Below, piece by piece: positions 24,849 to 55,179 of a stretch of 64,000 bases of DNA. The stretch comes from Austropuccinia psidii (taxonomy: Eukaryota > Basidiomycota > Pucciniomycetes > Pucciniales > Sphaerophragmiaceae). Numbering within the stretch: position 1 is the first letter of the stretch; every line of letters starts with the position of its first letter. Both the position numbers and the translations under genes were made by a program. Below the pieces are notes generated by a model that saw only the letters and a list, made by a program, of their open reading frames with translations, made no database searches and had not been told where the DNA came from. The DNA is taken from contig JALGQZ010000001.1 of assembly GCA_023105745.1 (NCBI GenBank), positions 65,552,937 to 65,616,936 of the forward strand, read 5' to 3'.

Positions 24849-26270
24849 TGTCAGTCTGAGTCTATCATGAAGGTGTAATAAAGCTATTTACAACTTTAAC
24901 TATGACTGTAACATGGTAAAATTAATTAAAAAGTGGTTGGATTATAGATCATAAAAGTTGAAAATGGAATAATAAGGGCTTTACTATTATAAAATAGTGG
25001 TGGTGAGTGCTGTTGAAAGCCCTGGGTGCAGTCTTACCAGGTGGGTTGCTATAATAAGAACTACAATACTAAGATTTAAACTATAACCTGATTATTTTCC
25101 AAGAGTATAGCTGTTTTGACAGTTGTACTATTTAGGAATTCAAAAGCAGGATGAGGAAACCTTTTCTGGTGCAGAAAACGCCCCTTTTTATCCTAAACTG
25201 GGGTGAAAAAGGCTTCTAGAGCTTTCCACGTAGATTAAGTGAAGATTTTTCACTTCCAAGGACTGCCTTGTGGTTTTCACAAGGCCTGTATAGCCTTTAT
25301 TGGGCTCAGATGTGGTTTTAAAACCACATCTGGGCAGTTTGCACCAATACAGGGTGAAAATTTTCATTTGGGGACCACATATCCCTCTTCTGATGTGTAT
25401 GTCACGTAGAATGCTGTACAGAGCCTGTAAAGAACCCCAGTATTAACCAAGCTATGAGGTATTGAATTATCAACAAGCTTCTTTGTATGTCTGACACCTC
25501 ATAATCATAGTTATGGGACATTATCCCACACTAAGGCTGTATTGGTCTAACTGTGGGATTTTGACCTTAAAAACAGCCACACCATTGTCAGTTTTTGAGA
25601 TATCAAGCTCAGGGTTAGGTCATTGTGAAGCCCTGGATGTGTACTACACAATGTTACCTCATTTAATATGGATATCATTGAATATGTCAAAGTTATGCCA
25701 TGTATAAAATGTTTTGTACATATGTATGATTTGCTTCAAATCTGGATGGAGCTTGTTTGCCCCATAAATTTTGGTATATATGAGATATGGAGAAATAGAT
25801 GGCACAATCAGATATCCCTGATTGTGCTATTTCCAAAAAGACCTGGCTTTGGGTATCTCACACTAAAACCATAGAATTTAGATGATAGGTGAATATTTTA
25901 TTCACCCTTATTTGACCTTATTTTGTCCACAACTGCTGTAGTTCTGGGGCTAGCACGATTCAACTAGTACCATTGCATAGCCCTGACTTAGAGCTTCAAA
26001 TTTAATACCAATTTTCTGGGGGTAAGCCTCTTCCTCTGGATTTCAGATGAGAAGGGAAAAATAAGGTTTATGCTCAGCAACAACTTTTTTATTCCTTGTC
26101 CTATAATGGTGGGACTTCTATATTTGGAAGTTGGTGGGTTTCCTCTTTCTTTTGATACCTTGTGAGCTGATTTGTCTCAGGTCCATGCTTTGGTGGTATT
26201 TTGGCTTTACCATTGGTTTGGGGTATTTGGATGTCATGCTTGTGCTCTGGGTTTGAGTCATAGGCTGACA
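24849..26270 (-). mobile_element. Family A LTR shared by A1 and A2
   Basis: 1,422 bp with inverted termini TGTCAG and CTGACA. On its left is the primer-site side of A1 (GGCCCCAAAAA before TGTCAG). On its right is the polypurine tract of A2 (GAAGGGAGGGTA on the minus strand). It therefore serves as 5' LTR of A1 and 3' LTR of A2. Matching copies are the split LTR 34404-35196 plus 48064-48689 (1,419 bp) and the inverted solo LTR 29789-31228 (1,440 bp). Confidence 0.85.
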
Positions 26271-34403: not shown

Positions 34404-35196
34404 TGTCAGGCTGAGTCTACAATGAAGGTGTAATAAGTCTATTCACAACTTTAACTATGAATGTAACATGGTAAAATTAATTAAATGAGGTTGGATTTTT
34501 AGATAATAAAACTTTCAAAATACAGTAACAAGGGCTTTGCTATTACAAAAGAATGGTGGTGAGTGCTGTTGAAAGCCCTGGGTGCAGTCTTACCAGTTTG
34601 GTTACTATAATAAGCGCTACAATACTAAAGCTTAAAGTATAACCTGATTCTTTCCGAATAGTATAAGTGTTTTTGACAGTTGTACTATGCAGGAATTCAA
34701 GAGAGGGATGAGGAAAGCCTTTCTGGTGCAGAAAAGGCCCATTTTTATCCTGAACTGGGGTGGAAAAGGCTTCTAGACCTTTTCACATAGAGGAAGTGAA
34801 GAGTTTTCACTTCCAAGGACTGCCTTGTGGTTCTCGCAAGGCCTGTATAGCCTTTATTGGGCTCAGATGTGGTTTTGAAACCACATCTGCGCAGTTTTCA
34901 CAAATAAAGGATGAAAATTTTCATCTGGGGACCACATAGTGCTCTTCTGACATGTATGACACGTAGAATTCTGTACAGAACCTGTACAGGACCCCAGTAT
35001 TGACCAAACTATGAGGTATTGAAGTATCAAAAAGCTTCTTTGTCTGTTTGACACCTCATATGAATAGGTATGGGAGATTATCCCAAACTAAGGCTGTATT
35101 GGTCTAAATGTGGAATTTTGACCTTAAACCTGCCATCCAATTGTCAGTTCTTGAGCTATGAAGCTCAAAGTTGGCTCTTTGTGTAGCCCTTGATGT
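34404..35196 (-). mobile_element. Family A2 5' LTR, first part (split by element B)
   Basis: Starts TGTCAGGCTGAG and follows the shared LTR base by base to 35196, where element B begins. The remainder resumes at 48064. The join reads through the LTR sequence seen at about 25630-25650. Confidence 0.9.
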
Positions 35197-35941
35197 TGTC
35201 ACAGGGGCTCTTCTAAGTGAAGAAGGCCTGGTACTCAGTAAGCCGGGACTCACTTATGGAGGGCTCAAGGATATGTTGAAGAGAAATACACTTAAGAGTG
35301 TTAAGAGATGAATTACTAATAGAAGAAATATAAGAAAAGCAGAAACAAAAGAATAAGAGTAAGAAATAGAAGAGCCAACCACAACCAAGTCCAAGTCCAC
35401 TGTTTCAACCTGTCAGAGTGAAAAGAGAAGGGTTAATAAGGATATGGCCACCCAACTCATACTGTACAGGCAAAGAAAGAAAATGCAAAGACTAACTTAA
35501 TATTAAATAAATATAATACCCAAAATAAGGATAAGAATATTCATAAAATTATAAATAAACTAAATTAATTGACTGGGGAAAAGTCCCCAGGGGGGAGAAA
35601 GAGGGGCTGGTATATGTGAGAGTCACCAGCCCTGATCCAGAGAGAGAATTTCCATGAGAGGATTTGATGATTTAATTGAGTCTGGCCAATACAGGCCCTG
35701 TACAAGAGGAGTGGTGATATTGAGTGATCATACAGTTTGGAAGTGGTGTATCCAAACTGTATTGGGTAATTCCAAGCTGTACAAGTATTGACCAGCTGTA
35801 TTGATGAAACAGACTGTATGCATGTTTCAGCAAGGAAGATTTCTGAAACTGAATGCTGATGCAAATAGCGGATCTGCTGATTTGAGGTGTTTGAGTGGGT
35901 GTATTAATGAATACCCTTACCCCTGTTGAGTGGTTGTTACA
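35197..35941 (-). mobile_element. Element B 3' LTR
   Basis: 745 bp, the same length as the 5' LTR. The next seven bases (GTATCCC, 35942-35948) are the start of B's internal polypurine side, after which a family D solo LTR intervenes. Confidence 0.9.
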
Positions 35942-35948
35942 GTATCCC

Positions 35949-37873
35949 TGTGAGCCTTGAGGTATATTTTACATACCCAAATAGGCCACAATTATCTTAA
36001 AAAGAAATTTTGAATTATGCATAACTCATAAGTCATGCATATATCCAAAATCCATCATTTTCAATTTCAGGAAAGATTAATAACTTTTTTTTGAGTAAGT
36101 AAATCCATGGATTTGAGACAAGATTTGGATTCTACACAAAAATTCACCTAGGGTAGCTCCATAGAGTGAATAAGCTCAAATTAACTCTTTGAGGTGTTAA
36201 AATGGAAAATACTTCAATACCACATCATCAATACCACATAAAAGATCCGTGAAAATTTTTGTTATTCTTATTTCACGCCAAAATAATGGGAAAGTGAGAA
36301 ATACCATGTTACATATACACTAAGAATAGTGTTATGCATGTTTTGAGCACTTAATATCATGGTATTCTTACATGGACTTTTGGTACACCCATAGTGGATA
36401 TCTCACTTTGTGCTTAAATTACTATTTTGACGTAAAAATTAGGCAAGGGGGACAAAAGACATCAAAGAGAGCCAGGGTACCCAACTTCTGAGGCCTCAGA
36501 GGCGTGGATAGCTCCAGAGCATAGATCCATGGCTCATCTTGGCCCAATTGGTAAACTAAAACTCTTTGGGAACTTGGTTACCAAGTTACACCTACTGTAA
36601 TCATAAGAAAATAGCAAATAACCTGCTATTTTGACGTGCCAAGGAGGTAATAAGCTACTTAGGCTCCTGTAACCACGTCAATTCTTGATGACTTTCCATG
36701 ACTAGACCCTAAAAGAGTAATTAAAACCCTTTTGGGATCCATATTCATTGATTTACCTCATAGCAACCAGCAAAATACTGCTATTTGCAATTCTACGTAG
36801 AAATGAGGTAAAAACTTCAAAAATTCATTAAAAATACAATTCTTAATGAATCTTTCTGAAACTTTCAGGACCAATGAAGAACTGTATTATCAATGGTACA
36901 ACCAAAAAGAATTACAGTTTTACTAGTAAAATTCAAAGTTTTTCTTACAGTCCATTTTTTGACCATTCTACGTGAAACACTGAATCTTGAAAAATTCACA
37001 GTAATTAAAACCTGTGATGAAATTGGCAATAACATTGATAACTTTGAGAAATCAATGATTATTTTGGAATAAAAGAAGATTTACTGTTGTTACTCCTTTT
37101 ATTCTTAACCATATTGAGGTTAGTAGTCACGTAAAAGCATCAATTAAGTAATTATGATAATCTTACGTGACAACAGATGATGCAATCATTAATCCAAAAA
37201 GGTTTATTGTTTTCTCACTCACTGGTTTTTCAGTGCGCTCCATGGCACTCCTCTGTGAGCTGTTGTTGACTTAAAAGAAGCCTCTTCTTGCTGTTTTTTG
37301 CGTATCATCATCTTATCAATTTATTAAATCATTATTACCAACAAGTAAGTATTAGTTAAAGCTATTCTTAAGTGTTTTAAATCTTTCAGAATCAACCAGA
37401 AAGACGTGAAATCATAGAATCCAACTATATATTGTTGTAATACTGTTATAAATCCTTTTTGATCCCTTAAAATCCACAATTCCACGTCAAATTTCTCTAC
37501 TCTTATCTATCAATAAGTTCTTTGGAGTATTAGTGAGTCATTTATTTTTAATTCTTAAATGTTTTTCTCTAGTAATAGTTTTCTTCAAGAAATATCTTTA
37601 TAATTATTCTTGTAAAAGATAATTATATATTAAAATAATTTTATTATTTTAATAAAGAAGTTTTTATTATTCAATTCTTCTTGTAATTGATTCTAGTAGA
37701 CAATTACTGCTCACTGTTATAATCACTAGTAGTGTATAACACGTGAAAGAAATAATTTCATAATTATTTAATTGTGGTTATAATAATCTTTTTTTATTAC
37801 ATTTCATAAGAACAGACATAGTACTGTTGATTAAATAGTAATATTATCATCAGTTTCATAGTCACATCTTACA
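35949..37873 (+). mobile_element. Solo LTR of family D at B's polypurine tract
   Basis: 1,925 bp, starting TGTGAGCC and ending TCTTACA. It is flanked by the duplication ATCCC (35944-35948 and 37874-37878). It matches, in inverse orientation, the LTR at 59592-61779 (for example the segment GATTCTACAC followed by CCTAGGGTA). It is AT-rich and non-coding. It lies between B's 3' LTR and the rest of B. Confidence 0.85.
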
Positions 37874-37890
37874 ATCCCCCTGTTGAAACT
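37874..37890 (-). promoter_or_regulatory. Element B polypurine tract, split by the D solo LTR
   Basis: The minus strand reads CAACAGGGGGAT here and continues GGGATAC at 35948-35942 next to the LTR. The intact equivalent in copy C (53097-53110) is CAAGAGGGGGATAC. The insertion duplicated part of the G-run. Confidence 0.7.
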
Positions 37891-38593
37891 GGTGGGCTCC
37901 TGAAAACCATAATACCCTGCCACTGTTGAGTGGAATCTCAATATCCCCACATTTTGTCAAAAAAATTTCTTTTTAATTTTCATTTCTTCTTGACCATTAT
38001 CCTGAAAATCCCTTTTCAATTCTTCCCTGCCAAAATAACTTGATTCCCCCTTTCTTATAAATTGAGTAAGTCTTCCACTTTGAAATGTGTCTTTTTTCTT
38101 CTTCTGATTCAATGAGTCTTTCTTCTTGGGGAATGGCCTTGGGCTGTATCCCAAAATGATGGCCACTGAGCTCTTCTGCTCATAAAGGATGCAAAATGAG
38201 TATATGAAGGTATAATAAATTGCCAAGGGTCAACCTCATGTTGGACCCTTCTTTCCCAGCTGAAAATGTCCTGGAGAGAGAATTCAAGGGGTCTTCTCCC
38301 CATTTGTCTTGGAAAATACCCCCCGGCCTTACCATAGTCTTTGGGCCTTGGCCCTTGATAAGGTAAATCTTGTTGATTCTTTATTCTATGGCCTTTTGGG
38401 CCTTTTTTGGGTCTTGGGAGCAATGGGTGTTTTTGGGTTCTATGGCCGTTTTTGGCCTTTTCTTTATTTTTTGTGTCCTATGGTCTGCGGGCTGTGGACC
38501 ATGGGCTGTATGCTGCAGTCCGTGGGGGCTGTTGGAGGCCTCCAGGACCAAAATGGACCCCCTGGGCCCAATTTTGCTGGGGACCCAGGGATG
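37891..38593 (+). other. Upstream region of the antisense gene (left of inserted LTR)
   Basis: Collinear with 53110-53740 of copy C. It contains a G/T-rich stretch with several overlapping open frames that are not conserved as proteins. It presumably holds the promoter or 5' leader of the plus-strand gene at 39640. Confidence 0.5.
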
Positions 38594-38598
38594 CCATG

Positions 38599-39363
38599 TG
38601 TCACAGCCAAGGAGGCAGGGGCATTTCCAATCATCATCAGCAAATCATTATATCATGGATACCCTTCAAAACCCAATCAGCAAGGGGGTTTCATTCAAGA
38701 CTCTCCAAATACAGTTTTCATACAGGCAAGATCCAAATACAGTTTCAAACCTCAATACAGTTTCATACAGGCAAGACTCAAATACAGGATTCACCAAATA
38801 CAGGCCTGTAATCAATACAGGCGCAAATACCTGTATTGACTGTATAACCTGTATTGGATTCACCAATACAGGATTCAATCCCACATCCAACTTCTTCCAG
38901 CATACAGACAAGTATCTCAACACTCAAACTCCAAGGCTGGTATTTCTCACATATACCAGCCCCTCTTCACCCACCTGGGGGTTTTTCCCCCAGTTAATTA
39001 AAATAGTTGATTTATTATTTAATATTATTTTATTCTCACTTTTGGAATATTATTTTATTACTTATTAAGTTAGTCTTAGCCTTCCCTCACCTGTTCAGTA
39101 GAGTCCTGGTGGCCATATCCTTATTAATTCCTTTTCTCTTTTCTGAACAGGTTGAAACAGTGACTCAGGATTATTTGTGGTTGGCTCTTTATTATTGCTT
39201 TTGTTTTGTCTCTCTTATCTTTTATGCTTATTATTTTATGACTAGGAATTTATCCTCTTACTCCATTACTCTTATCATTTGAGTATTTTCTTCTGAGCCC
39301 TCCATAAGTAAGTCTGTTCACTGAGTGCCAGGCCCTCTTCATTTTAGAAGAGCCCCTGTGACA
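38599..39363 (+). mobile_element. Solo LTR of the B family inside element B
   Basis: 765 bp with inverted ends TGTCACAG and CTGTGACA, flanked by the duplication CCATG (38594-38598 and 39364-39368). It is a diverged relative of B's LTRs, in opposite orientation, and includes an expanded ATACAG-rich stretch (about 38700-38880). It lies 277 bp upstream of the antisense gene's ATG and transcriptionally points toward it. Confidence 0.9.
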
Positions 39364-39639
39364 CCATGGGACCATAAATTGGCCCATGGACCCATATCTC
39401 ACCTACATGGCCTGGACCCATTGAGATGGTCCAGGACAATCAATATTCTGGCCTCCAAAAAGTTGCAGGGGAGGTCCTGGGTGATGAATTCAGCCCCAAA
39501 GGGGCCTTGAATCTTCACCTTGGAGGCTTTGAGGGGGGGCATAATTGAGTTATGCCCCATTTCCTTGAGGTCATTTGTCTTTGACTTGGAGTGGGCTGAT
39601 TCTGACATATTGAATCTTCTGCTTGCATATTCTTCAGTT

Positions 39640-40852
39640 ATGAGTTCCAAACTGACTGAACTCACTGAATCTTCTCCTTCCGCGCCGCCGCCATCTGTCC
39701 TTTGTGGTTCTGGCGTCTTCAGTCGATTGCCTTCACTCTCCATGGCTTCTTCTGGGAATCTTGATCCCTCCCAAACATATGATGGTTACAAGGCAGTTGA
39801 GGTCCTTGATCCTGCTTGTACTGAGTGTATGGCCAGGGGTAAGGATTGTTTTCAACACTACAATCCTCAATCTTCAAAGTGCCATTACTGTTTCATTGGA
39901 AAGAGGCCATGTTGTTGTACTGGGGTGCCAACTTCTAATTTCAGGAGGTATTTATGGAGTAGGAAGGATGGGCCTTTTGGGAAATAGTTCCCAGTTTCTG
40001 AGGCACCTACTCCTGATGGAACTTCAGGGTATTCCCATTGTGAGTAACTTGAATAACTTGATTAAAATAGGTACTGATATTCTTGATGTAGTGACTTGTT
40101 CTAGGCAGAGGGATGTGGCAAGGTGGACTAGTGTTGGAGGGCCAATTCCAGTTGGTGGTAGGCCAATATATTCCAGCTCAGAAGTCCCAATCTCCAGGAT
40201 CAATACTGAAGGGGTAGTGAAAAGGATAAGAAGGATTGCTGATTCCCCAACTGATCCAGATGCTGAAGGTAGTGATGAGTTGGATGGTGAAGAAGTTGTA
40301 GTTGTTCCCCATTCAGTTAACCACCAATCCAGCACTTGCTCTTCTCAGCCTCTTGCCAACAGATTCCAAAGTCAAGCTATTCCCGGTACTACCAGAAATT
40401 TCCAACCTGTTCTTGCTTCCATTCCTACTTCCCTTCCTCCTGCTTCACCAATTCCTTCCTTGAATCAAGCAGTAAGACCATCACCCCACCAGAAACCCAG
40501 GAACTCACCCATAACCACCTCTCAACAACTCCAACCTATGGCCAGTTCCAGTAGAAGAAGAGATGGATTGTCTCCTTTGCCATTTCCTTCCACTCAAGTC
40601 TTTCAAAGAAGAGATTGTTGGCCTATCCAAATTACTAGAGAAGATCCAAACGCGGCAAGTGAAAACCAAGAAGCTGTGGCCAGGGTATTCAGGAGAGTTG
40701 ATAGAACTAGCACAGAGGTGATTATGTATGCAAATGATAGAACTATTCTGGGTACTGCTTCAGAAGAGATGGCTGCAAAATCTGCCTGGTGTGAGGATGA
40801 TTTGATAAATGACTTTCAGAGAACCGTTGACGATTTAGGTAAAGATAAATAG
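39640..40852 (+). pseudogene. Antisense element gene: Zn2Cys6-like protein, two exons, one premature stop
   Basis: The ATG at 39640 starts MSSKLTELTESSP. Removing a 52-nt intron (40040-40091, GTGAGT..GTAG) gives 386 codons ending at TAG 40850-40852. Residues C60, C63, C70, C81, C84 and C91 have the spacing C-x2-C-x6-C-x10-C-x2-C-x6-C, within the consensus of fungal Zn2Cys6 zinc clusters. A Ser/Pro-rich, probably disordered middle part follows (about 190-290). The C-terminus is conserved with copy C: DCWPIQITREDPN, VIMYANDRTI, GTASEEM. The only disabling change I see is a TAG at codon 116 (39985), where a sense codon is expected. It lies convergent to pol within element B and is present at the same place in copy C. 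Zinc or DNA binding is inferred from spacing only. I recognise it as an abundant A. psidii family. Confidence 0.75.
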
Positions 40853-40927
40853 TTTCCTTGTCATTGTTTGTGTTTGGTTTGACTTCTATCCCCACTCTTA
40901 TAACTACTAAAAATGAAACAAATGATA

Positions 40928-40951
40928 CCTCCCAATTCATGACTTGGGAGG
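40928..40951 (+). terminator. Hairpin shortly after the antisense gene
   Basis: CCTCCCAA and TTGGGAGG form an 8-bp stem with an 8-nt loop, 76 nt past the stop codon. A comparable 7-bp stem (CCTCCCA/TGGGAGG) occurs at 55264-55287 in copy C. It lies between the convergent antisense gene and pol. A role in 3' end formation is a guess. Confidence 0.4.
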
Positions 40952-41532
40952 GGATGCTGCTTCTTTTAACAAATGAAAGAAAAACAGAATTATACAAGTA
41001 AAGAAAAGAAAGAAAATGAGAGAAAAAGGGAGTAGAGAAAAAGAAATAGAGAAATTCCTGATGTTTTGTCCTTCTTGTAGTGAGTTGCTTGATTTTTGCC
41101 AAGAATGTCTGAAAATAAAAACCAAGCATTTGATGCTCACAGAGTGGCCCAGGTAATGATTTACAAGAAGTAGAACCCTCAGGGATGCATACCAGGAGAT
41201 GGAACTTACTTTCATGACTCTCACTCCCCACCAAGAACCATAACATGAAACAAATTTCCATAAATGACTTGAATTAATGAAAGTCTTGAATAATGATGAT
41301 TGGCATAAATTGAAATATTGATAAAGAGAAAAGAAAAAAAAAGAAAGAAGAGATAAGGCCATATCTTAATAAGGTCCAAATTGGAGGGTATTGATGTTGC
41401 ATGCTTCATGAGTCTGTCCAAAAAGTTGACAAGAGCTCACAAAGTGGCCAAGGTGATGCTTACAACAACATATGGGTAGAATACCCCCTTGAAGGTGCAG
41501 GCCAGGAGAGCAACTTACTTTCATAACTTCTT
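40952..41532. other. Spacer between antisense gene and pol
   Basis: A purine-rich plus strand (about 40970-41060) with no conserved frame, then sequence collinear with copy C 55290-55884. It probably holds the 3' untranslated parts of both convergent genes. Confidence 0.5.
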
Positions 41533-41790
41533 CTACCCACCAAGCACCATAAATAAAACTCTTGAGGTATTTGGACCAGGCTTACCAGGATACAATGAAT
41601 GGAAATCTTTGACAGGGTCTGGTGAGCTGGTAAGGTTGGAAGCTGGTTCCCAACTTGTTCTTTCTGGGTCTTGACTGAATCCTTCCCACTCTACAAGATA
41701 CCATAATTTACCTCTCTTGAGTTTGGAGTCCAGAACCTGAGCCACTTCCCATTCTTCTTGCTCTTGCACTATGACTGGTGGTGGTGGCAA
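41533..41790 (-). pseudogene. pol: Element B chromodomain (C-terminus of Pol)
   Basis: The frame has EWEVAQVLDSKLKRGKLWYL, VEWEGFSQDPERTSWEPASN and HSLYPGKPGPN. This is a canonical chromodomain fold signature (VAQVLDS..YLVEW.GF....SWEP..NL) with aromatic residues at the cage positions. It would read histone tail methylation to direct integration. It is in frame by itself but separated from the integrase by a frame break near 41800-41860. Confidence 0.85.
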
Positions 41791-41865
41791 TTGATGTCAA
41801 TTTGGAATAGCTGATTGATTCACTTGTTCTAATAAGGACACATGAAAGACAGGGTGAACTGACTT

Positions 41866-43115
41866 TCATTGTTGAGGCAACTTGAGGTGATATGCATGGC
41901 TCCCAATCTTAAGAACTTCAAAGGGTCGCAGCCATCTTTCTGAAAGTTTCTTGGTGGGTCTTGTAGTCTTGATGTTCTTGGAAGCTAGCCATACCTTATG
42001 CCCAGGTTGGAAATCAGGTGGAATTGCTCTATTTGTATCTGCATACTTCTTGAACCTCCTTACTGATAAGTCTAATTCTTCTTTCACAACTTTCTGTACT
42101 GATTGGAGTTTTGTTGATAACTTTTCAGCAGGTGAGTCTTGAGAAACATGGATTGAGTCAAAGCTGGGATTTCTTCCATAAATTCTGAAAAGGGTGATTG
42201 CTTTGTTGATTAATTTTCTGCATTATTATAGGAAAATTTAGCCAGGGAGAGCCAGGTGTGCCAGTAATCTTAATGGTAACTGAAATACATCCAAAGATAC
42301 TGTTCTAGAATCTGATTTACCCTCTCTGTCTGTCCATCTGTTTGGGGATGAAATGCAGTTGAAAGATCTCTTGATATCTTGAGCTGCTCACATAATTGAG
42401 TCCATAATGATAAAACAAATAGAGAACCTCTATCACTAACAATACTGACAGGAAGGCCATTTTAGGAAAATACATGACTAATAAAGATTTGAGCTAAGTC
42501 CAGTGCAGTGATTGCTCCATAAGTTGGAATGAAGATTGCCATTTTTGAGAATCTATCCACAACCATTAAAATTGAAGCAAAGTTGTTTGAGAGTGGCAAT
42601 TGAGTGATAAAGTCCATTGATAATGAATTCCAAGGACTAGACGGAATTGAAAGAGGCTTGAGTGATCCAAACTTCTTATGATGAATGTTCTTGTTTCTTG
42701 AACATTTCTGACATGAGGACACCTAGTCCTTAATGAATTGATTGATGCCATCCCAATAAAAATCCCTCTTTATGAGCTTGAGGGTTGTCTCCTGGCCAGG
42801 ATGGCCAGCCAATGGTGAGTCACGACGCTTTTGAAGAATATTGAGTTGGATTTCTTCATTTATTGGGATTACCACTCTATCTTTGAATAATAATAACTTG
42901 GCTTGAGGTTCAAGAGAATAATCTGGAACTGATTTACCTCTTGCTAGTTGCTTGAGTATTTCTTTATAATCATCGTCTTGCCATACTTCTTTTTGAATCT
43001 TGTCAACTGAATCTGAGAATATTTCTACTTTGATTGAGAAGAATCTTGACTCTTGAATTCCATCTTGCTTTATTACTTGATGAAAACTTTGAGGATTCTT
43101 GCTGATCAAGTCCAC
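41866..43115 (-). pseudogene. pol: Element B integrase
   Basis: The zinc-binding part is PLAGHPGQETTLKLIKRDFY with the CQKC pair at about 42700 (the first His is Arg). Core: [54 protein letters not shown], i.e. Asp, Asp and Glu of the catalytic triad are all visible. The C-terminal part is FQPGHKVWLASKNIKTTRPT and LSERWLRPFEVL. Stops at about 42720 and 42462 and a frame change near 42090 break it. Confidence 0.8.
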
Positions 43116-44640
43116 CCCCCTCTCTGGTTACACGTTGTCCTGACATGACAAGGCATCTGGTACAGTGGCCAGCCTGCCAGGTTGGTCAGTAATAGTGAAA
43201 TGAAACTCAGAAAGGAATTCAGCCCAATGGGCCTGACAAGTACTAAGAACTTTAGAAGACATGAAATACTGCAGGGAAGAGTGTTCTGTCAAGACCTAAA
43301 AAGGATTGGAAAGAGAAAGAAGGAAAGCTCCCCAGCACTTGAGAGCCCAAAATATGCCAAGGAGTTCCTTGTCATGAGTTCATAGTTGAGCTCAGCTGGA
43401 AGCAGCTTGCGACTATCAAATGCAATGGGATGCTTTCCTGAGTCATTCACCTGACTCAGTATAGCACCCAAAGCATAATCAGAAGCATTGGTCTCCACTA
43501 TATTTGGTAGAGAAGGATTTAAATGAGCAAGGATAGGTGCAGTGGTGAATGCTTCTTTGAGTATTTGAAACTGGCTAAGAGCTTCCTCATTGAAGATAAA
43601 AAGGAGAGTTTTTTTTGAGAAGGGAAGTGAGAGCAGTGATTTTTTTAGAGTAATTTTTTATGGAAAGACGATATAAATTGGAAAATCCCAGAAAGGATTG
43701 AAGAGCCTTGATTTTTCTGGGCTGAGACCAATTGAGGATTTTCTGAACCTTTGAAGAATTCATCTTGAGAACTTCACTTGAAACAACATAGCCCAAGTAT
43801 TCCACACTTGAAGCATGGAATACACACTTGGAGGCTTTAGCAAACAAATTATTCTCTCTCAGCCTTTGGAGGACAGAGCTCACATTTTTGACATGTTCTT
43901 CCTCAGGACTGGAGAAAACCATAATATCATCTAGATAAACCAAAACACACACATTCAAAAAATCTGCAAGTATATCATTCAGTAGATTCTCAAAAGACGC
44001 AGGAGCATTGGTAAGGCCAAATGGCATAACCAAACACTTGTAGCTACCATATTTGGCTCTAAAGGCAGTTAAGTGCTCATCCCCCTCTTTGATTCTCAAG
44101 AGATTATATGAACCACACAGATCTATCTTGGAGAAGATAGTGGCACCGTTGAATACAGTAAGAAGCTTGTTCATAGGAGGAACAGGATACCTGTTCTTCC
44201 TAGTGACAGCATTGAGTTTGGGGTATTCAACACATAAAAAAAGACCTCCATCCTTTTTCTTGACAAAAAGGACAGGTTCTCCTGTTGAAAAGGAGCTTGG
44301 CCTTATGAAACCTTTCTCTACAGTATCTTAAATTAACGCCCATAGTGTTTCTGACTCTTGATTTGATAATGAGTAGATAACACCCACTGGAGGTAGAAGA
44401 CCCTCCAGTTTGATATGATGATCATAGGCGCAATGTGGAGGAAGTTTCTCTGCTTTCACCTTGGAGAATACATCCAAAAATTGGTGATAATCAGGAGGGA
44501 CTACCTTCAAAACAGTTTCAATTTCTTATGAATCTTCCTCCTCATCCCACTGCCCCTCCATGGAGGCATGATAAGATAAAGGAGGAAGATCCATATCCCC
44601 TTGAAAGAGATGAAGTGAAGATATAGCAACATCTTATCCA
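43116..44640 (-). pseudogene. pol: Element B reverse transcriptase and RNase H
   Basis: RT starts near 44510 with VPPDYHQFLDVFSKVKAEKL, then [40 protein letters not shown] and the catalytic VLVYLDDIMVFSS (about 43920-43945, intact YLDD). The connection reads ALQSFLGFSNLYR. RNase H begins METNASDYALGAILSQVNDS and HPIAFDSRKLLPAELNY (43289-43498), then breaks. Copy C preserves the RNase H better. Confidence 0.85.
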
Positions 44641-44684
44641 ACATCTTTTATACCTTTGAAGACTTAATCTCTTAATGGAAGTAA

Positions 44685-45251
44685 TTACTGAGAGGGAATG
44701 ATGGAACAGATATGGACAGAATAATGAAGGGAAGGTGTCTTAAGTCCACCAACCAGCGCAACACTGTTGACAGCAGTGGCAAAGCCATTACTAGCAGAAG
44801 GAAGAATACCACTAGAATCATAGGTGATCAATCCATTTTTCCAATCAATAATGGGATTGAAATGGTAAAGGAAATCATATCCCAATATCAGGTCTTCTCC
44901 TTTGGGTGAATCTATGATAAAAAAGTCGCATTCAAAGCTTGGGAAGGAAGGCAAGTCAACTACCCACTTGGTATTATGGGTCATGAACAAGGCAGGAGAT
45001 TTATTTGAGTCCAGAATGAAAAGAGGAATCTTTTCAGGAAGCTCTGACAGAGTCAATGAGTACTTGAGAACAAAATTCTTTGCAATAAAAGAGTCTGTAG
45101 CACCAGAATCAATGAGAATACTATAAAAAAATATCAGAGAAAGAAGAAAAAATAAGAAACTTTGAATATTTCTTGACACTAGTATTCCGAGTGCACAATT
45201 GTGCTCTTGAAGGAAATAAGTGGGAACCATTGAACACATCATGATCCCCAC
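44685..45251 (-). pseudogene. pol: Element B aspartic protease
   Basis: The frame has YSILIDSGATDSFIAKNFVL with an intact D-S-G active site (about 45090-45115) and the distal motif GEDLILGYDFLYHFNPIIDW. The 189-residue frame is uninterrupted, making it the best-preserved protease in the window. It lies between the Gag knuckle and RT. Confidence 0.8.
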
Positions 45252-46607
45252 TCAGGCTTTACCCTGCTTTCTAGGGAAGCCTCTTGATGACCCGGGATTG
45301 TTCTGAGGTCTCTCGAAGCATTTTTTAATTGGGTGCTTTCCACCACAATAAGTACACAACCCCTCTTTAATCCTCCTCTCCTTTTCAGAACCGATTAATT
45401 TATTTTCCTTCTTCAGGAGAGCAGCTTGGGGCTTGTCCTTTGAGGATTGAAATTGCTTTCCCTTCTTATTCTTTTTTGCTGAGGCCTTGTTGAAGATGAG
45501 TTTTCAGGAGGCCTATATTGATTGGACCCAGTAGCAGGAGGCTTTTTCTCTTTATTGCCACCCGTTTCTTTTTGCCTCTCATGATATATTGTGTCTAATT
45601 CTAAAGTGACATCCATAACTTCTTGACAAGTGTCAAAGGTTCCAGGGTGAGAAGCCAACTTATCCAATAATCTTTATGCCAATCCTCTTCTGTAACCATG
45701 GATATAAGCTCTTTCCCCCAATCTCCAATTCTTGACATTAAGCCCCTGAAATCATCAATGTGCAAGGATACATGACCACTTTCCTTCATCCTCAAACTGT
45801 CTAACACCTGTTTAACCTTTCTGAATTCATTGGGGTCACCAAACAGAGTGAATAATTGATTTTCAAATAACTGCCAATTATTGAGGAGGTAGGAAGGATC
45901 TTCATTAGAAATATATGAGAGATAGGGTTCAATCCACTTTCCAGCTCTACCAGTGAGAAAATAAGTTGAGGAAAGAACTTTCTTCCTGTCAGAGAAAAAA
46001 TTTGCTGGGTCATTATGGAAAATTAATTGAAAGGATTGGATGAATCATCTCAATTCATGAGCTTGAGTACCATCAAAAAAATTGGGTGCCTTCATGGATG
46101 GAGTCTTGAAAGCAGGGGCTTTGGAATTGTCCCTGGGGGTAACTGCTTGAGTGAGTTGCCCCATGCATTGAATCATTTGGTCCATCATCTTGAGGAGACT
46201 TGGTTCAGTCTGAGAGACAAGAGGTTGATGAGACAGTGCTAGATTAGAGCCCTGACGCACCTCTGGAGCATTTGCCAAAGCATCTGCTGATTCAGTTTCC
46301 CCAGAATCTTCCTCTTCCACAGACTCCTCCCCCTCTTCATCTTCAACTTCTCCTATTCTTGCTCTTGCACCTTCAGACATGCCAGGGCGCCACCCAAAAG
46401 GCCATAGAAAGATCTTGATTTTCTTGATTTCATTCCCCCTCTTCTTGAGGGTGCTTCTCCTTCCATTGGCTGTCCTCTGTCCAAGTTAGCACTCAGTTGA
46501 TGAACTGATGGTGTGTGGTCAAGAGGAACCCTTTCCATAGGAGTGAGAACAGCTGGATTTCTTTGAAATCTAGTTTTCTTGGCTGGAGGGCTATGCTGAA
46601 CCGGCAT
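45252..46607 (-). pseudogene. gag: Element B Gag
   Basis: Starts at an ATG at 46607 (MPVQHSPPAKKTRF), followed by an acidic stretch (EDEEGEESVEEEDSGETESA), APAFKTPSMKAPNFFDGTQA, RAGKWIEPYLSYISNEDPSY, the capsid-like block VLDSLRMKESGHVSLHIDDF and LDKLASHPGTFDTCQEVMDV. The zinc knuckle CTYCGGKHPIKKC (C-x2-C-x4-H-x4-C, complete) is near 45325-45365. At least four frame changes split it. I recognise the family as an abundant A. psidii Gag. Confidence 0.8.
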
Positions 46608-47313: not shown

Positions 47314-48058
47314 TGTCACAGGGGGTCTTCCAAGTGAAGAGGGCCTGGAACTCAGTAAACGGGGACTCACTTATGGAGGGCTCAAGGATATGATGAAGAG
47401 GAATACACTTAATAGTGTTAAGAGATGGATTACTAATAGAAGAAATTTAAGAAAAGCAGCAAGAAAAGAATAAGAGTAAGAGATAGAAGAGCCAACCACA
47501 AACAAGTCCAAGTCCACTGTTTCAACATGTCAGAATGAAAAGAGAGGGGTTAATAAGGATATGGCCACCCAGCTCATACTGTAAAGGCAAAGAAAGAAAA
47601 TGCAAAGACTAACTTAATATTAAATAAATATAATACCCAAAATAAGGATAAGAATATTGATAAAGTAACAAATAAACTAAATTAAATAACTGAGGAAAAT
47701 TCCCCAGGGGGGAGAAAGAGGGGCTGGTATATGTGAGAATCGCCAGCCCTGATCCAGAGAGAGAATTTCCATGAGAGGATTTGATGATTGAATTGAGTCT
47801 GGCCAATACAGGTCCTGTACAAGAGGAGTAGTGGTATTGAGTGATCATACAGTTTGGAAATGGTGTATCCAAGCTGTATTGGCTAATTCCAACCTGTACA
47901 AGTATTGACAGGCTGTATTGATGAAACAGACTGTATGCATGTTTCAGAAAGAAAGATTGCTGAAACTGAATGCTGATGCAAATAGTGTATCTTCTGATTT
48001 GAGGTGTTTGAGTGGGTGTGTTAATGAATACCCTCACCCCTGGTGAATGGTTGTTACA
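47314..48058 (-). mobile_element. Element B 5' LTR
   Basis: 745 bp. In element orientation it starts TGTAACAACC and ends CTGTGACA. It contains a TATA-like CATATACC and a pyrimidine run about 20-45 nt before the segment complementary to the candidate primer site, so transcription may start near 47690. Confidence 0.9.
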
Positions 48059-48063
48059 GATGT

Positions 48064-52110: not shown

Positions 52111-52335
52111 TTCCCAGGTTGATATTTAGATACACCATCAAGGCCATCAATGTCAAGGGTGATGGAAACTGTGGTTATAGAGCAGTATCCCACTACATTT
52201 ACAATACTAAAGAGCAATGGGCTGATGTCAGAGGTGACTTGGTTGAATACATTCAAAAAACGCAAGACATTTATGAGGCCATGAATGCTTTAATGACCTC
52301 AGTATCCTCTTATATGGAAAGAATTGAATGGTATG
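52111..52335 (+). pseudogene. OTU-like cysteine protease domain, N-terminal part
   Basis: INVKGDGNCGYRAVSHYIYN contains the OTU active-site motif D-G-N-C with the catalytic Asp and Cys, followed by WADVRGDLVEYIQKTQDIYE and SVSSYMERIEWYV. The domain is cut after about 70 residues by the LTR at 52336, losing the catalytic His. OTU domains fused to MULE transposases are known (KAONASHI-type); here the join lacks the transposase core. Confidence 0.75.
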
Positions 52336-53096
52336 TGTCAGAGGGGCTCTTCTAAGTGAAGAGGTCCTGGAACTCAGTAAATGGTGTTCATTGCAGAGGG
52401 CTCAAAGGATGAGAAAGGGCAAAAAACTAAAGAGTGTAATGAGAGTAATTATTGCTAAGAAATTCCAATATCAGAGAAGCACCAACAAGAATAAGAGGAA
52501 GAGACAGAAGAACTAACCACAAGCAAGTCCAAGTCCACTGTTTCAACCTGTAAGAAGGAAAGAGGAGGGTTAATAAGGATATGGCCACCACACCTCATAC
52601 TGAACAGGTGGGAGAAAAATGCAAAGACTAACTTAATTCCAATAACTATAATAACAAAAAATAAGAGTAAGAATAATTATAAAATAATAAATCAACTAAA
52701 TTAATTAACTGGGGAAATGTCCTCAGGGGAGAGAAAGAGGGGCTGGTATATGTGAGAATCACAAGCCCTGATCCAGACAGAGAGTTTTCATGAGATGGAT
52801 TGATTATTGAGTTGAATCTGGCCAATACAGGTCCTGTACAAACTGTAAAGGATATGTACAGGAGGAGTGGTAGTGTTGAGTGATCATACAGTTTCAGGAG
52901 GGTCTATCCAATCTGTATTGGGTAATTCCAACCTGTACCAGTATTTACAGGCTGTATTGATTCACCAGATGGTATGCATTTTTTAGCAAGCAAGATTACT
53001 GAAACTGATTGCTGATACACACAGTGTATTCCTGGTTTGAGGTGTTTGAGTAGGTGTAAGATTGAATACCCTTACCCCTGACTAGTGGTTGTTAGG
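52336..53096 (-). mobile_element. Copy C 3' LTR
   Basis: 761 bp, starting TGTCAGAGGGGC on the plus strand and ending TTGTTAGG, where CA has mutated to GG. Contains the segment CTAAATTAATTAACT (52696-52710), the best match to B's candidate priming site. Confidence 0.85.
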
Positions 53097-53110
53097 GTAT
53101 CCCCCTCTTG
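53097..53110 (-). promoter_or_regulatory. Copy C polypurine tract
   Basis: The minus strand reads CAAGAGGGGGATAC and abuts the 3' LTR. This is the intact form of the tract split in element B. Confidence 0.75.
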
Positions 53111-53971
53111 AAACTGGTGGGCTCCTGAACACAATAATACCCTGCCACTGTTGCGTGGCAGCACAAAATCCCCAAATTTTTTTCTAAAAATCTTCTTTTG
53201 ATTTTTCTTTGCCTCTTGACCATTATTCTGAAAATCCTCTCCTCTCTTCATTACCTTTGATTATCTGTCTTCTCCCCTTCTTTCAATCTTGAGTAAGTTT
53301 TTCAATCTTCGAATTATACTCTTCTGAATTTCAATCAATAACTCCTTTAAAGACATGACCCTTGGGTTGTATCCCAAAACTAAGGTCTTAGAGCTCTTCA
53401 CCTCAAAAAATGATTAATAATGGTGATATGAACATATGTACCCATTATTGACTGGGCAGTTGTTCCTCTTGGCTCCTCTTCACCTTTATTGGCCTCTGGA
53501 ATCATCCAAGGAGGGGGCTTGTTCCCATTGTCCTTGAAATTTGGCCTGAAATTTGGTTTTTTGGCCATTATAAACCCTGGCTATTTCCATGGCCCCTTTT
53601 GTTGGAATGGTGATCAGGGGCCTTTTGGGTCATTTGAGGTCCTATGGGTTTTTGGGTCTTTGGCTTTTCCTAGGGTCCATGGTCCATGGGGGTTACCAGA
53701 GCCCCCCAGGGCCAAAAAACGCCCATATGGCAGAATTCCAGGGGGTCCATGGGACCATGACTTCACCTTCATGGCCTGGGCCCATTGAGAGGGTCTAGGG
53801 CCATGGACTCTGACCTTCCCCAATATTTCAGGGAAGGTCTTGGGTGATTGATCGGGGCCCAAATTGAGGGGCCATAACTGGCTTCTGGGCCATCTTCATT
53901 CATTAATCTTCAGGATTGGAGTGAAGTATTCTGACGCACTGAATTCTTCTGCCTGAAAAATTTCTATAGAC
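53111..53971 (+). other. Upstream region of copy C antisense gene
   Basis: Collinear with 37891-39639 of B once B's inserted LTR is removed. It contains GGG/CCC-rich segments (53690-53800) producing overlapping open frames on both strands that are not conserved proteins. It presumably holds the promoter of the antisense gene. Confidence 0.5.
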
Positions 53972-55179
53972 ATGAGTTCCAAACTAACTGAACTCACTGA
54001 ATTTTCCCCTTCTGAGCCACCATCTGTTCTTTGTGGTTTTGGCATCCTCAACCAGTTGGCTTCACCCTGGTCAATGGCTTCATCTGGGCACTTTGATCCT
54101 GGCCAAACCTATGATGGCTACAAGGCCATTGAAGTTGTTGATCCTACTTTTACTGAATGTTTGGCCAAGGGAAAAGATTGCTTTCAGCACTCCAACCTCA
54201 AACCTTCAAAGCTTCACTTCTTCTTTGTTGGGAAGAAACCATGCCGTCATCGTGGGTCAGACGCTTCCAACCTCAGAAGGATTGCCCTTTTGGGAAGGAG
54301 ATCCCAGTTTCTGAGGTCCCAACTCCTGATGCTACTTCAGGCTGTTGTGATTGTGAGTCAAACGAACTTCTTGATTGAATTGGATACTGATATCTTGAAT
54401 TAGTGACTGGTTCTAGGCAGAGGGATGTGGCAAGATGGACCAATGTTGGAAGGTCCATTCCAGTTGGTGGTAGGCCAATCTACTCCAGTTAAGCAGTCCC
54501 AATTTCCAGCATCAACACTGATGGAGTAGTCAAAATAATAAAAGGAATTGCCAATTCCCCACCTGATGCGGATGCTGAAAGCAGTTATGAATTGGATGGA
54601 GAAGAAGTTGAGGTGGTTAATAATCCAGTTGGCCAAAAATCCAGCACTTCTCCTTCTCAGCCTCCTGCCAAAAGGTTCCAAAGCCACCTGATTCCAAGTA
54701 CCCCTAGAAACTTCCAAAAAAATCTTTCTTCCACTCCTACTTTCCTTCCTCATCCTTCACCAAGTTCTTCCCACACCAGGCCTGCCATAAATACAGCAGT
54801 AAGACCATCCCCCATTCAACAGTCCAGAGCCTCACCCATAGTCACGTCTCAAAAACTCCAACCTGAGGCCAGCTCCAGTAGAAGAAGAGAAGAGCTTTCA
54901 CCTTTACTGTTTCCTGCCACCCAAGTATTTCAGCAAAGGGATTGTTGGCCTATCCAAGTTACCAGAGAAGATCCAAATACCACAAGTGAAAACAAAGATG
55001 CTGTGGTCAGGTTGTTTAGGAGAGCTGATAGAAATAGTAAGAAGGTGATTATGTATGCTTATGATAGAACAATCCGTGGTACTGCTTCTGAAGAGGTGGA
55101 TCAAACATTTGGCCGGTATAAAGATTAATTGAGCAATGATTTCCAAAGCGCTTTTGATCATATGGGTAGAGATAACTAG
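53972..55179 (+). pseudogene. Copy C antisense gene: Zn2Cys6-like protein, decayed
   Basis: The ATG at 53972 gives MSSKLTELTEFSPSE. The exon ends at 54352, and an intron 54353-54403 (GTGAGT..TTAG) sits at the same place as in B. The second exon resumes TGSRQRDVARW and ends at TAG 55177-55179. Of the six zinc-cluster cysteines, positions 60, 81 and 84 are now Phe, Leu and Phe, so metal binding is lost. A frameshift near residue 106 and stops near 54490, 54520 and 55128 add to the damage. The C-terminal block (54592-55128, e.g. ASSSRRREELSPLLFPATQV, DCWPIQVTREDPN, VIMYAYDRTIRGTASEE) remains well conserved with B. Confidence 0.75.

What the first reader, a model, noticed from the sequence alone, without database searches (positions are those of the whole stretch)
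37874..41790. A spliced antisense gene with a Zn2Cys6-like domain inside a chromovirus
Seen: element B (bounded by LTRs and target duplications) carries, between its chromodomain and 3' LTR, a plus-strand gene with ATG at 39640, a 52-nt intron and 386 codons. Six cysteines are spaced C-x2-C-x6-C-x10-C-x2-C-x6-C. Copy C has the same gene at the same place with its intron at the same position. Known: this spacing fits the Zn2Cys6 class of fungal DNA-binding proteins, and extra antisense ORFs are known in a few plant Gypsy elements. Inference: the family encodes its own zinc-cluster regulator, convergent to pol, which might bind the LTR or silence or activate copies. This is the strongest candidate here for an undescribed system.
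Basis: partly seen in the sequence, partly recalled or inferred. Interest (0 to 1): 0.88.

Follow-up and report, generated by a model that had tools for sequence, protein, structure and literature searches.

The report
Spliced antisense gene in rust retrotransposons
An abundant jumping element in a rust fungus carries an extra gene, read backwards and spliced, whose protein natural selection preserved while the element spread, so the element probably encodes its own helper or regulator, although that job is untested.

Summary
The gene is real. In element B it lies on the + strand between the chromodomain and the 3' LTR: ATG 39640, a 52-nt GT-AG intron (40040-40091), 386 codons, six cysteines with the stated spacing. 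The window lies in a 1.015-Gb genome, almost certainly Austropuccinia psidii (1007 protein hits; the 120 listed are all from that species). Of sixty genomic copies from two subfamilies, 52 keep GT and AG at the intron, 56 have the chromodomain convergent downstream and 47 the LTR end upstream. Net dN/dS between the subfamilies is 0.18 (0.12-0.25), near 0.1 in the cysteine region and C-terminus; two wrong frames of exon 2 exceed 1. So the protein was under purifying selection while the element spread.

Corrections: B's gene has a stop at codon 116 and copy C has lost three of six cysteines. Zn2Cys6 is supported by spacing only. Regulation of the LTR is unproven; the LTR holds a dense TACAG/CTGTA array. 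Antisense ORFs at this place are known in plants and in the fungal chromovirus Boty, so this is a new variant of a known kind. How many family members lack the gene could not be tested.

The parts
35197..35941 (-). 3' LTR of element B (for the minus-strand pol)
   Evidence: 50 differences from the other LTR in 746 aligned columns; ends TGTCAC...TTACA and duplication GATGT at 35192-35196
35690..35818 (.). Array of TACAG/CTGTA motifs in U3 of the 3' LTR
   Evidence: 7 of the 10 motifs of this LTR lie here; 10 per LTR against 1.7 in first-order Markov simulations
35949..37873 (.). Later insertion with TG...CA ends between LTR and internal region of B, duplication ATCCC; not part of the system
   Evidence: junction sequences against copy C
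37874..39639 (+). Region between 3' LTR and aORF start (presumed 5' UTR/promoter of the aORF); contains a nested LTR
   Evidence: homologous to 53099-53971 of copy C; 83% identical next to the LTR, otherwise 43-70%
38599..39363 (+). Nested inverted solo-LTR-like insertion, duplication CCATG; in B, not in copy C; not part of the system
   Evidence: inverted match to B LTR at 75.9%, ends and duplication
39640..40039 (+). aORF exon 1 with the six-cysteine region (39817-39912); in-frame stop at codon 116 in this copy
40040..40091 (+). 52-nt GT-AG intron
   Evidence: 52 nt in 30 of 30 B-group copies, GT donor in 29 of 30, AG acceptor in 30 of 30
40092..40852 (+). aORF exon 2; proline/serine-rich linker and conserved C-terminal part
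41569..41796 (-). Chromodomain at the 3' end of pol, convergent with the aORF
   Evidence: translation; on the opposite strand beyond the gene end in 28 of 30 B-group and 28 of 30 C-group loci
41866..46485 (-). gag-pol of element B, interrupted by stops: SH3_Tf2-1, integrase H2C2, RNase H, RT, protease, gag with zinc-knuckle-like motif at 45318-45356
   Evidence: Pfam; frames; motif
47314..48058 (-). 5' LTR of element B; duplication GATGT at 48059-48063; motif array at 47807-47935
52333..53096 (-). LTR of copy C, with motif array 52826-52956
53972..55179 (+). aORF of copy C (decayed; intron 54353-54403, 51 nt; three of six cysteines lost). Analyses used 53973-55178.

Best explanation
This is a conserved accessory gene of an abundant chromovirus family of a rust fungus. 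It lies between pol and the 3' LTR, is read from the opposite strand, is spliced through one 51-52-nt intron, and encodes a protein of about 386-391 residues with a cysteine-rich N-terminal module, a fast-evolving linker and a conserved C-terminal module (shown by sequence, intron conservation and codon-level selection; splicing itself was not observed in RNA). Because the intron is antisense to the element's genomic RNA it is not removed from that RNA and is carried through each round of retrotransposition (inference from polarity, and it fits the intron's presence in the copies). The protein most likely binds zinc and nucleic acid and acts in the nucleus on the element's own expression or integration, much as HBZ does for HTLV-1; the U3 motif array is a candidate target (inferred, untested).
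For: 1007 related proteins at E <= 1e-3, the 120 listed all from A. psidii MF-1. GT and AG kept at the intron in 29 of 30 B-group and 23 of 30 C-group copies; length 52 nt in 30 of 30 and 51 nt in 25 of 30. Chromodomain convergent beyond the gene in 28 of 30 and 28 of 30, LTR end upstream in 24 of 30 and 23 of 30. Net dN/dS 0.18 (95% 0.12-0.25) for the gene, 0.10 (0.02-0.26) for the cysteine region, 0.07 (0.02-0.14) for the C-terminus, 0.54 (0.29-1.09) for the linker, against 0.13 (0.01-0.49) for the chromodomain and 1.15 and 2.34 in wrong frames of exon 2. B-C differences fall most often on third codon positions, 41 of 89 in exon 1 and 76 of 165 in exon 2. Cysteine changes on a protein tree: 43 on tips, 5 internal, against 1347 and 410 elsewhere, P = 0.036. 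LTR motif density 9-14 per LTR against 1.5-1.9 simulated.
Against: No transcript evidence was seen. No Pfam match beyond one chance hit, no zinc-cluster match in PDB sequences, structure models of mean pLDDT 39 and 42. Twenty-seven of 30 and 28 of 30 sampled copies have in-frame stops; B-group copies show no third-position excess among themselves. Only 11 of the 120 listed MF-1 proteins hold the full six-cysteine pattern, and the third cysteine is kept in 13 of 30 C-group copies. Random sets of six alignment columns had as few internal changes as the cysteines in 45% of draws. Weaker motif clusters occur at 25286-25537 and 34843-35094, where tblastn with four family proteins found no such gene, so a host factor could bind the motif; the motif was picked by eye before testing. 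Conservation of motif positions beyond their surroundings is not significant by net divergence (P = 0.12 and 0.08). The cysteines may serve RNA or protein binding instead.
Confidence: 0.55

Rival explanations
1. The protein is an accessory factor of the replication cycle rather than a transcriptional regulator: it coats or escorts RNA/cDNA, helps nuclear entry, or steers integration with the chromodomain.
For: Cysteine-rich region and a separately conserved C-terminal part; the gene sits beside the chromodomain. Review passages suggest such roles for plant antisense ORFs (PMC7264820).
Against: Gag of element B already has a zinc-knuckle-like motif. Nothing ties the protein to Gag or integrase.
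Confidence: 0.27
2. A canonical fungal Zn2Cys6 transcription factor gene captured by the element.
For: Spacing fits; profile comparison with seven recalled Zn2Cys6 domains gave probability 77%, score 23.85 against a mean of 13.7 in 100 shuffles with cysteines fixed.
Against: That alignment covers 13 columns and pairs our first half with the second half of the family, and the best shuffle reached 24.1. First half resembles Zn half 2 (P = 0.0025, uncorrected, six comparisons made), second half resembles neither. No Pfam Zn_clus match.
Confidence: 0.1
3. The antisense RNA, not the protein, matters: it pairs with genomic RNA and feeds small-RNA silencing.
For: The gene is complementary to the genomic RNA; RNAi genes are reported in all 12 Pucciniomycotina genomes of PMC12210899 (passages seen; A. 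psidii is not among the species named in the genome-data passage).
Against: Codon-level purifying selection in the coding frame and intron conservation are not expected of a non-coding role.
Confidence: 0.05
4. Decaying captured host gene without function in the element.
For: Most sampled copies have stops.
Against: Net dN/dS 0.18 is close to that of the chromodomain (0.13, interval 0.01-0.49), and the raised ratios are found within subfamilies.
Confidence: 0.03

Closest known systems
Boty of Botrytis cinerea with antisense gene brtn (Zhao et al. 2011, paper not seen; described in passages of PMC7264820, PMC8365987, PMC4227169)
   Same: Fungal LTR element with a chromodomain in pol and an additional antisense gene between pol and 3' LTR
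   Different: Host is an ascomycete (recalled).
Plant Retand/Grande/RIRE2 antisense aORFs (TRP28 domain in Retand; PMC7264820, PMC11963269, passages seen)
   Same: Antisense ORF between pol and 3' LTR, conserved across a family, suspected DNA binding and regulatory role
   Different: Retand is a non-chromovirus lineage; no TRP28 match here; the word 'intron' has 0 occurrences in PMC11963269
HTLV-1 HBZ and APH proteins (PMC10186651, passages seen)
   Same: Antisense, spliced, made from the 3' end of a retroviral genome, nuclear regulators in most cases; a functional analogy
   Different: bZIP in HBZ rather than cysteine-rich; a retrovirus, no homology claimed
Fungal Zn2Cys6 (Zn_clus, PF00172) transcription factors
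   Same: Six cysteines with compatible spacing
   Different: No profile match, basic residues and half-domain order differ

Membership tests
Antisense aORF between pol and 3' LTR (aORF-3R) | Coding frame on the opposite strand between pol and the 3' LTR | tested here: met
Antisense aORF between pol and 3' LTR (aORF-3R) | Present in many copies of the family | tested here: met
   40 candidates scored per query, 40 and 41 matches; 3968 and 3286 first-look candidates, the rest unscored
Antisense aORF between pol and 3' LTR (aORF-3R) | Present in most members of the family | not tested
   pol-based search did not complete
Antisense aORF between pol and 3' LTR (aORF-3R) | Selection on the protein | tested here: met
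   net dN/dS 0.18
Zn2Cys6 (PF00172) | Six-cysteine spacing (recalled: CX2CX6CX5-12CX2CX6-8C) | tested here: met
   element B; 11 of 120 listed proteins hold the full pattern
Zn2Cys6 (PF00172) | Profile match to Zn_clus | tested here: not met
   no Zn_clus hit for seven proteins at E <= 10; no zinc-cluster chain in the PDB profile search
Zn2Cys6 (PF00172) | Basic first half (recalled: CRxRKxKC) followed by the second half | tested here: not met
   our first half resembles the family's second half; our second half resembles neither (11 of 40 aligned proteins had the pattern, first 4 used in the shuffles)
Zn2Cys6 (PF00172) | Binuclear zinc cluster fold | tested here: inconclusive
   mean pLDDT 39 and 42
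Chromovirus (Ty3/Gypsy with chromodomain) | RT, RNase H, integrase and C-terminal chromodomain in one element with LTRs | tested here: met
   (chromodomain by eye)

The most novel reading that the evidence does not exclude
The element encodes its own trans-acting regulator of a new zinc-binding type, which reads the TACAG/CTGTA array in U3 of its LTR and sets copy activity; and the gene with its upstream region moves between subfamilies as a cassette, since its synonymous divergence (net dS 0.41) far exceeds that of the chromodomain (0.126) and the net divergence of the LTR (0.055).
Probability: 0.25. Interest if true: 0.78.

Novelty: new variant of a known kind. Interest (0 to 1): 0.6.

Why it matters
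Antisense ORFs of LTR elements are recurrent, and a review states that their functions are yet unknown (PMC7264820, passages). Here sixty copies out of thousands of candidates in one genome gave a codon-level answer: the protein was selected for while the element spread, in a genome reported to be over 90% transposable elements (PMC8063080, passages). An antisense intron is also a natural marker: a transcript spliced on the + strand would come from the accessory gene and not from genomic RNA, so expression could be read from strand-specific RNA data. If the protein controls the LTR, it is part of the explanation of how a fungal genome reached a gigabase.

Tried and rejected
Canonical Zn2Cys6 factor: rejected as a filing, see membership test. 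The inverted LTR upstream of the gene as its promoter: rejected, because it is a nested insertion with its own target duplication, absent from copy C. Unspliced reading of the 398-codon frame that runs through the intron (some MF-1 gene models use it): rejected, since exon 1 in the two other frames shows net dN/dS of 1.44 and 0.97 against 0.22 in the stated frame (B group against copy C). Distant relatives: no locus in viral contigs (165 pattern matches, none confirmed); searches with the length window shifted to about 405-1300 residues found 6 and 5 proteins, all A. psidii. These searches would miss relatives of other lengths or without shared words, so restriction to A. psidii is not shown. 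Motif conservation in U3: raw divergence between subfamilies is low (P = 0.005 against random sites in the array, 0.025 over the wider LTR), but net divergence is not significant (0.12, 0.08) and 8 of 112 shifted patterns do as well. Fold searches were not run because both models were of low confidence. Paper searches whose listings showed no description of this gene; of papers, only passages (and one named section) of seven were seen. Numbers of in-frame stops printed are one too low; one search gives the right ones. LTR dating: ten copies tried, five gave an LTR pair; L010 (0.652, truncated and poorly aligned) was dropped, and L004, L006, L008, L012 gave 94.8-96.6%; for L012 the right-hand piece was over-extended by a second hit.
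Full report
What is there. The window lies in a 1,015,390,075-base assembly of 84 contigs.

Element B has LTRs 35197-35941 and 47314-48058 with 50 substitutions in 746 aligned columns and the duplication GATGT. Its pol reads on the minus strand and matches RVP_2, RVT_1, RNase H, Integrase_H2C2 and SH3_Tf2-1, followed by a chromodomain recognised by eye. On the plus strand lies the accessory gene: exon 1 39640-40039, intron 40040-40091, exon 2 40092-40852. In B codon 116 is a stop. Two later insertions sit in B, 35949-37873 and, inverted, 38599-39363. Copy C (LTR 52333-53096, gene 53972-55179) is more decayed: three of six cysteines lost, a 19-base deletion in exon 1, two in-frame stops in exon 2.

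Is it a family trait? The B gene as DNA query gave 3968 first-look candidates, of which 40 were scored and all 40 matched at 90-100% identity; the C gene gave 3286, 40 scored, 41 matches at 77-100%, some of them partial. These are candidate counts, not confirmed copies. I analysed the 30 best loci of each (B group including B itself; C group including C itself). The LTR end lies upstream in 24 of 30 and 23 of 30, usually 0.8-1.0 kb before the ATG; the chromodomain lies on the opposite strand beyond the gene in 28 of 30 and 28 of 30, full-length in 24 and 23, usually about 0.7 kb beyond the stop. In the B group all 30 start with ATG and have a 52-nt intron; 29 keep GT, 30 keep AG. In the C group 25 of 30 introns are 51 nt; 29 keep GT, 24 AG, 23 both. 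These samples were chosen by presence of the gene, so they do not say how many family members lack it; the search that would tell did not complete.

Is it a functional protein? Within each subfamily dN/dS is 0.67 and 0.58 and most copies have in-frame stops (27 of 30, 28 of 30), as expected of dead insertions. Subtracting within-group from between-group divergence isolates the lineage along which the element was active: net dN 0.074, net dS 0.41, ratio 0.18 (95% 0.12-0.25). By part: codons 1-53 0.16 (0.03-0.57), 54-107 with the cysteines 0.10 (0.02-0.26), 108-205 0.10 (0.05-0.18), linker 206-295 0.54 (0.29-1.09), 296-386 0.07 (0.02-0.14). The chromodomain gives 0.13 (0.01-0.49) (random subsets of up to 300 between-group and 200 within-group pairs each; with all pairs gives the same for the whole gene). 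Exon 2 read in the wrong frames gives 1.15 and 2.34. The estimates are Nei-Gojobori distances with Jukes-Cantor correction from my own script, with codon bootstrap; in the cysteine region net dS exceeds 1 and is poorly determined. A single-pair estimate between B and C gives 0.32 (0.24-0.44), which still contains the decay of both copies.

The cysteines. Each position is kept in 28, 28, 22, 25, 26, 29 of 30 B-group and 23, 19, 13, 17, 22, 25 of 30 C-group copies; all six in 14 of 30 and 3 of 30. Of 120 listed MF-1 proteins 44 have the domain in frame, and 32-39 of these keep each cysteine; 11 of 120 hold the full pattern. On the tree of the 44, cysteine changes are mostly terminal, 43 against 5, versus 1347 against 410 for other columns (Fisher P = 0.036), but six random columns had no more internal changes in 45% of draws, so this is weak.

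Is it Zn2Cys6? Spacing fits. No Pfam family matched among seven proteins except a chance deformylase hit; the PDB profile search gave four chance matches. Profile comparison with seven recalled Zn2Cys6 domains gave 77% probability, over 13 columns, pairing our first half with their second half; 100 shuffles with cysteines fixed gave mean 13.7 and maximum 24.1 against 23.85 observed. A half-by-half test showed the same, P = 0.0025 uncorrected, with no likeness of our second half to either of theirs. AlphaFold models have mean pLDDT 39 and 42. I therefore call it a cysteine-rich, probably zinc-binding region.

The LTR. The U3-side part of the LTR holds 7 TACAG/CTGTA motifs within 130 bp; whole LTRs (B left, B right, C, nested solo) hold 10, 9, 10 and 14 against 1.5-1.9 in simulations. 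The motif was noticed by eye first. In the 24 B-group loci with LTR the segment has 0-10, mean 6.25, the zero being a 33-base remnant. Six clusters were found in the window; four are LTRs of this family or the nested solo LTR, two lie in another element where tblastn with four family proteins found no such gene. The array is a candidate regulatory region; its reader is unknown, and its conservation beyond the surroundings is not established.

Cassette. Net dS of the gene is 0.41, of the chromodomain 0.126, and net divergence of the LTR part 0.055 (19 and 18 LTRs); between B and C the region upstream of the gene is 43-70% identical except next to the LTR. The gene and its upstream region thus seem to have a deeper split than the LTR and pol on either side, which suggests exchange by template switching. 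A higher mutation rate there is not excluded, and no interval was computed for these differences.

How it most likely works. Shown: gene, intron, position, selection. Inferred: expression from a promoter between LTR and ATG or in the LTR; zinc and nucleic-acid binding; nuclear action on the element. HBZ of HTLV-1 is the best functional analogy (PMC10186651, passages seen). Known relatives in kind are the antisense ORFs of plant Gypsy elements and of Boty, whose pol has a CHROMO domain; Zhao et al. 2011 itself was not seen. Hence: new variant of a known kind.

Noticed in passing
window:41050-41240 and window:41390-41560: Two degenerate direct repeats between the aORF stop and the chromodomain (seen by eye, not tested); [quoted passage not shown]
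   Followed up: no
window:1-64000: CpG is strongly depleted: 283 CG against 2101 GC.
   Followed up: partly
window:39817-39912 and copies L002-L030: Lost cysteines become phenylalanine more often than tyrosine (10 F and 3 Y among 22 losses in the B group), which points to G-to-T changes exceeding G-to-A at these codons; A to S also exceeds A to T in MF-1 proteins (113 against 21), though other residue pairs in the same count do not show it.
   Followed up: partly
window:25286-25537 and window:34843-35094: Weaker TACAG/CTGTA clusters in repeats of the neighbouring element, where the accessory gene was not found.
   Followed up: partly
P0009, P0012, P0014 and other MF-1 gene models: Public gene models read this gene in different frames: by a crude pattern 22 of 120 look spliced, 15 read through the intron, 83 unclassified. 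One close relative is named 'RxLR effector protein' in UniRef, which looks like a misnomer for a transposon gene.
   Followed up: partly
L004, L006, L008, L012: LTR pairs of four copies are 94.8-96.6% identical and B 93.3%, compatible with insertions of similar age.
   Followed up: partly
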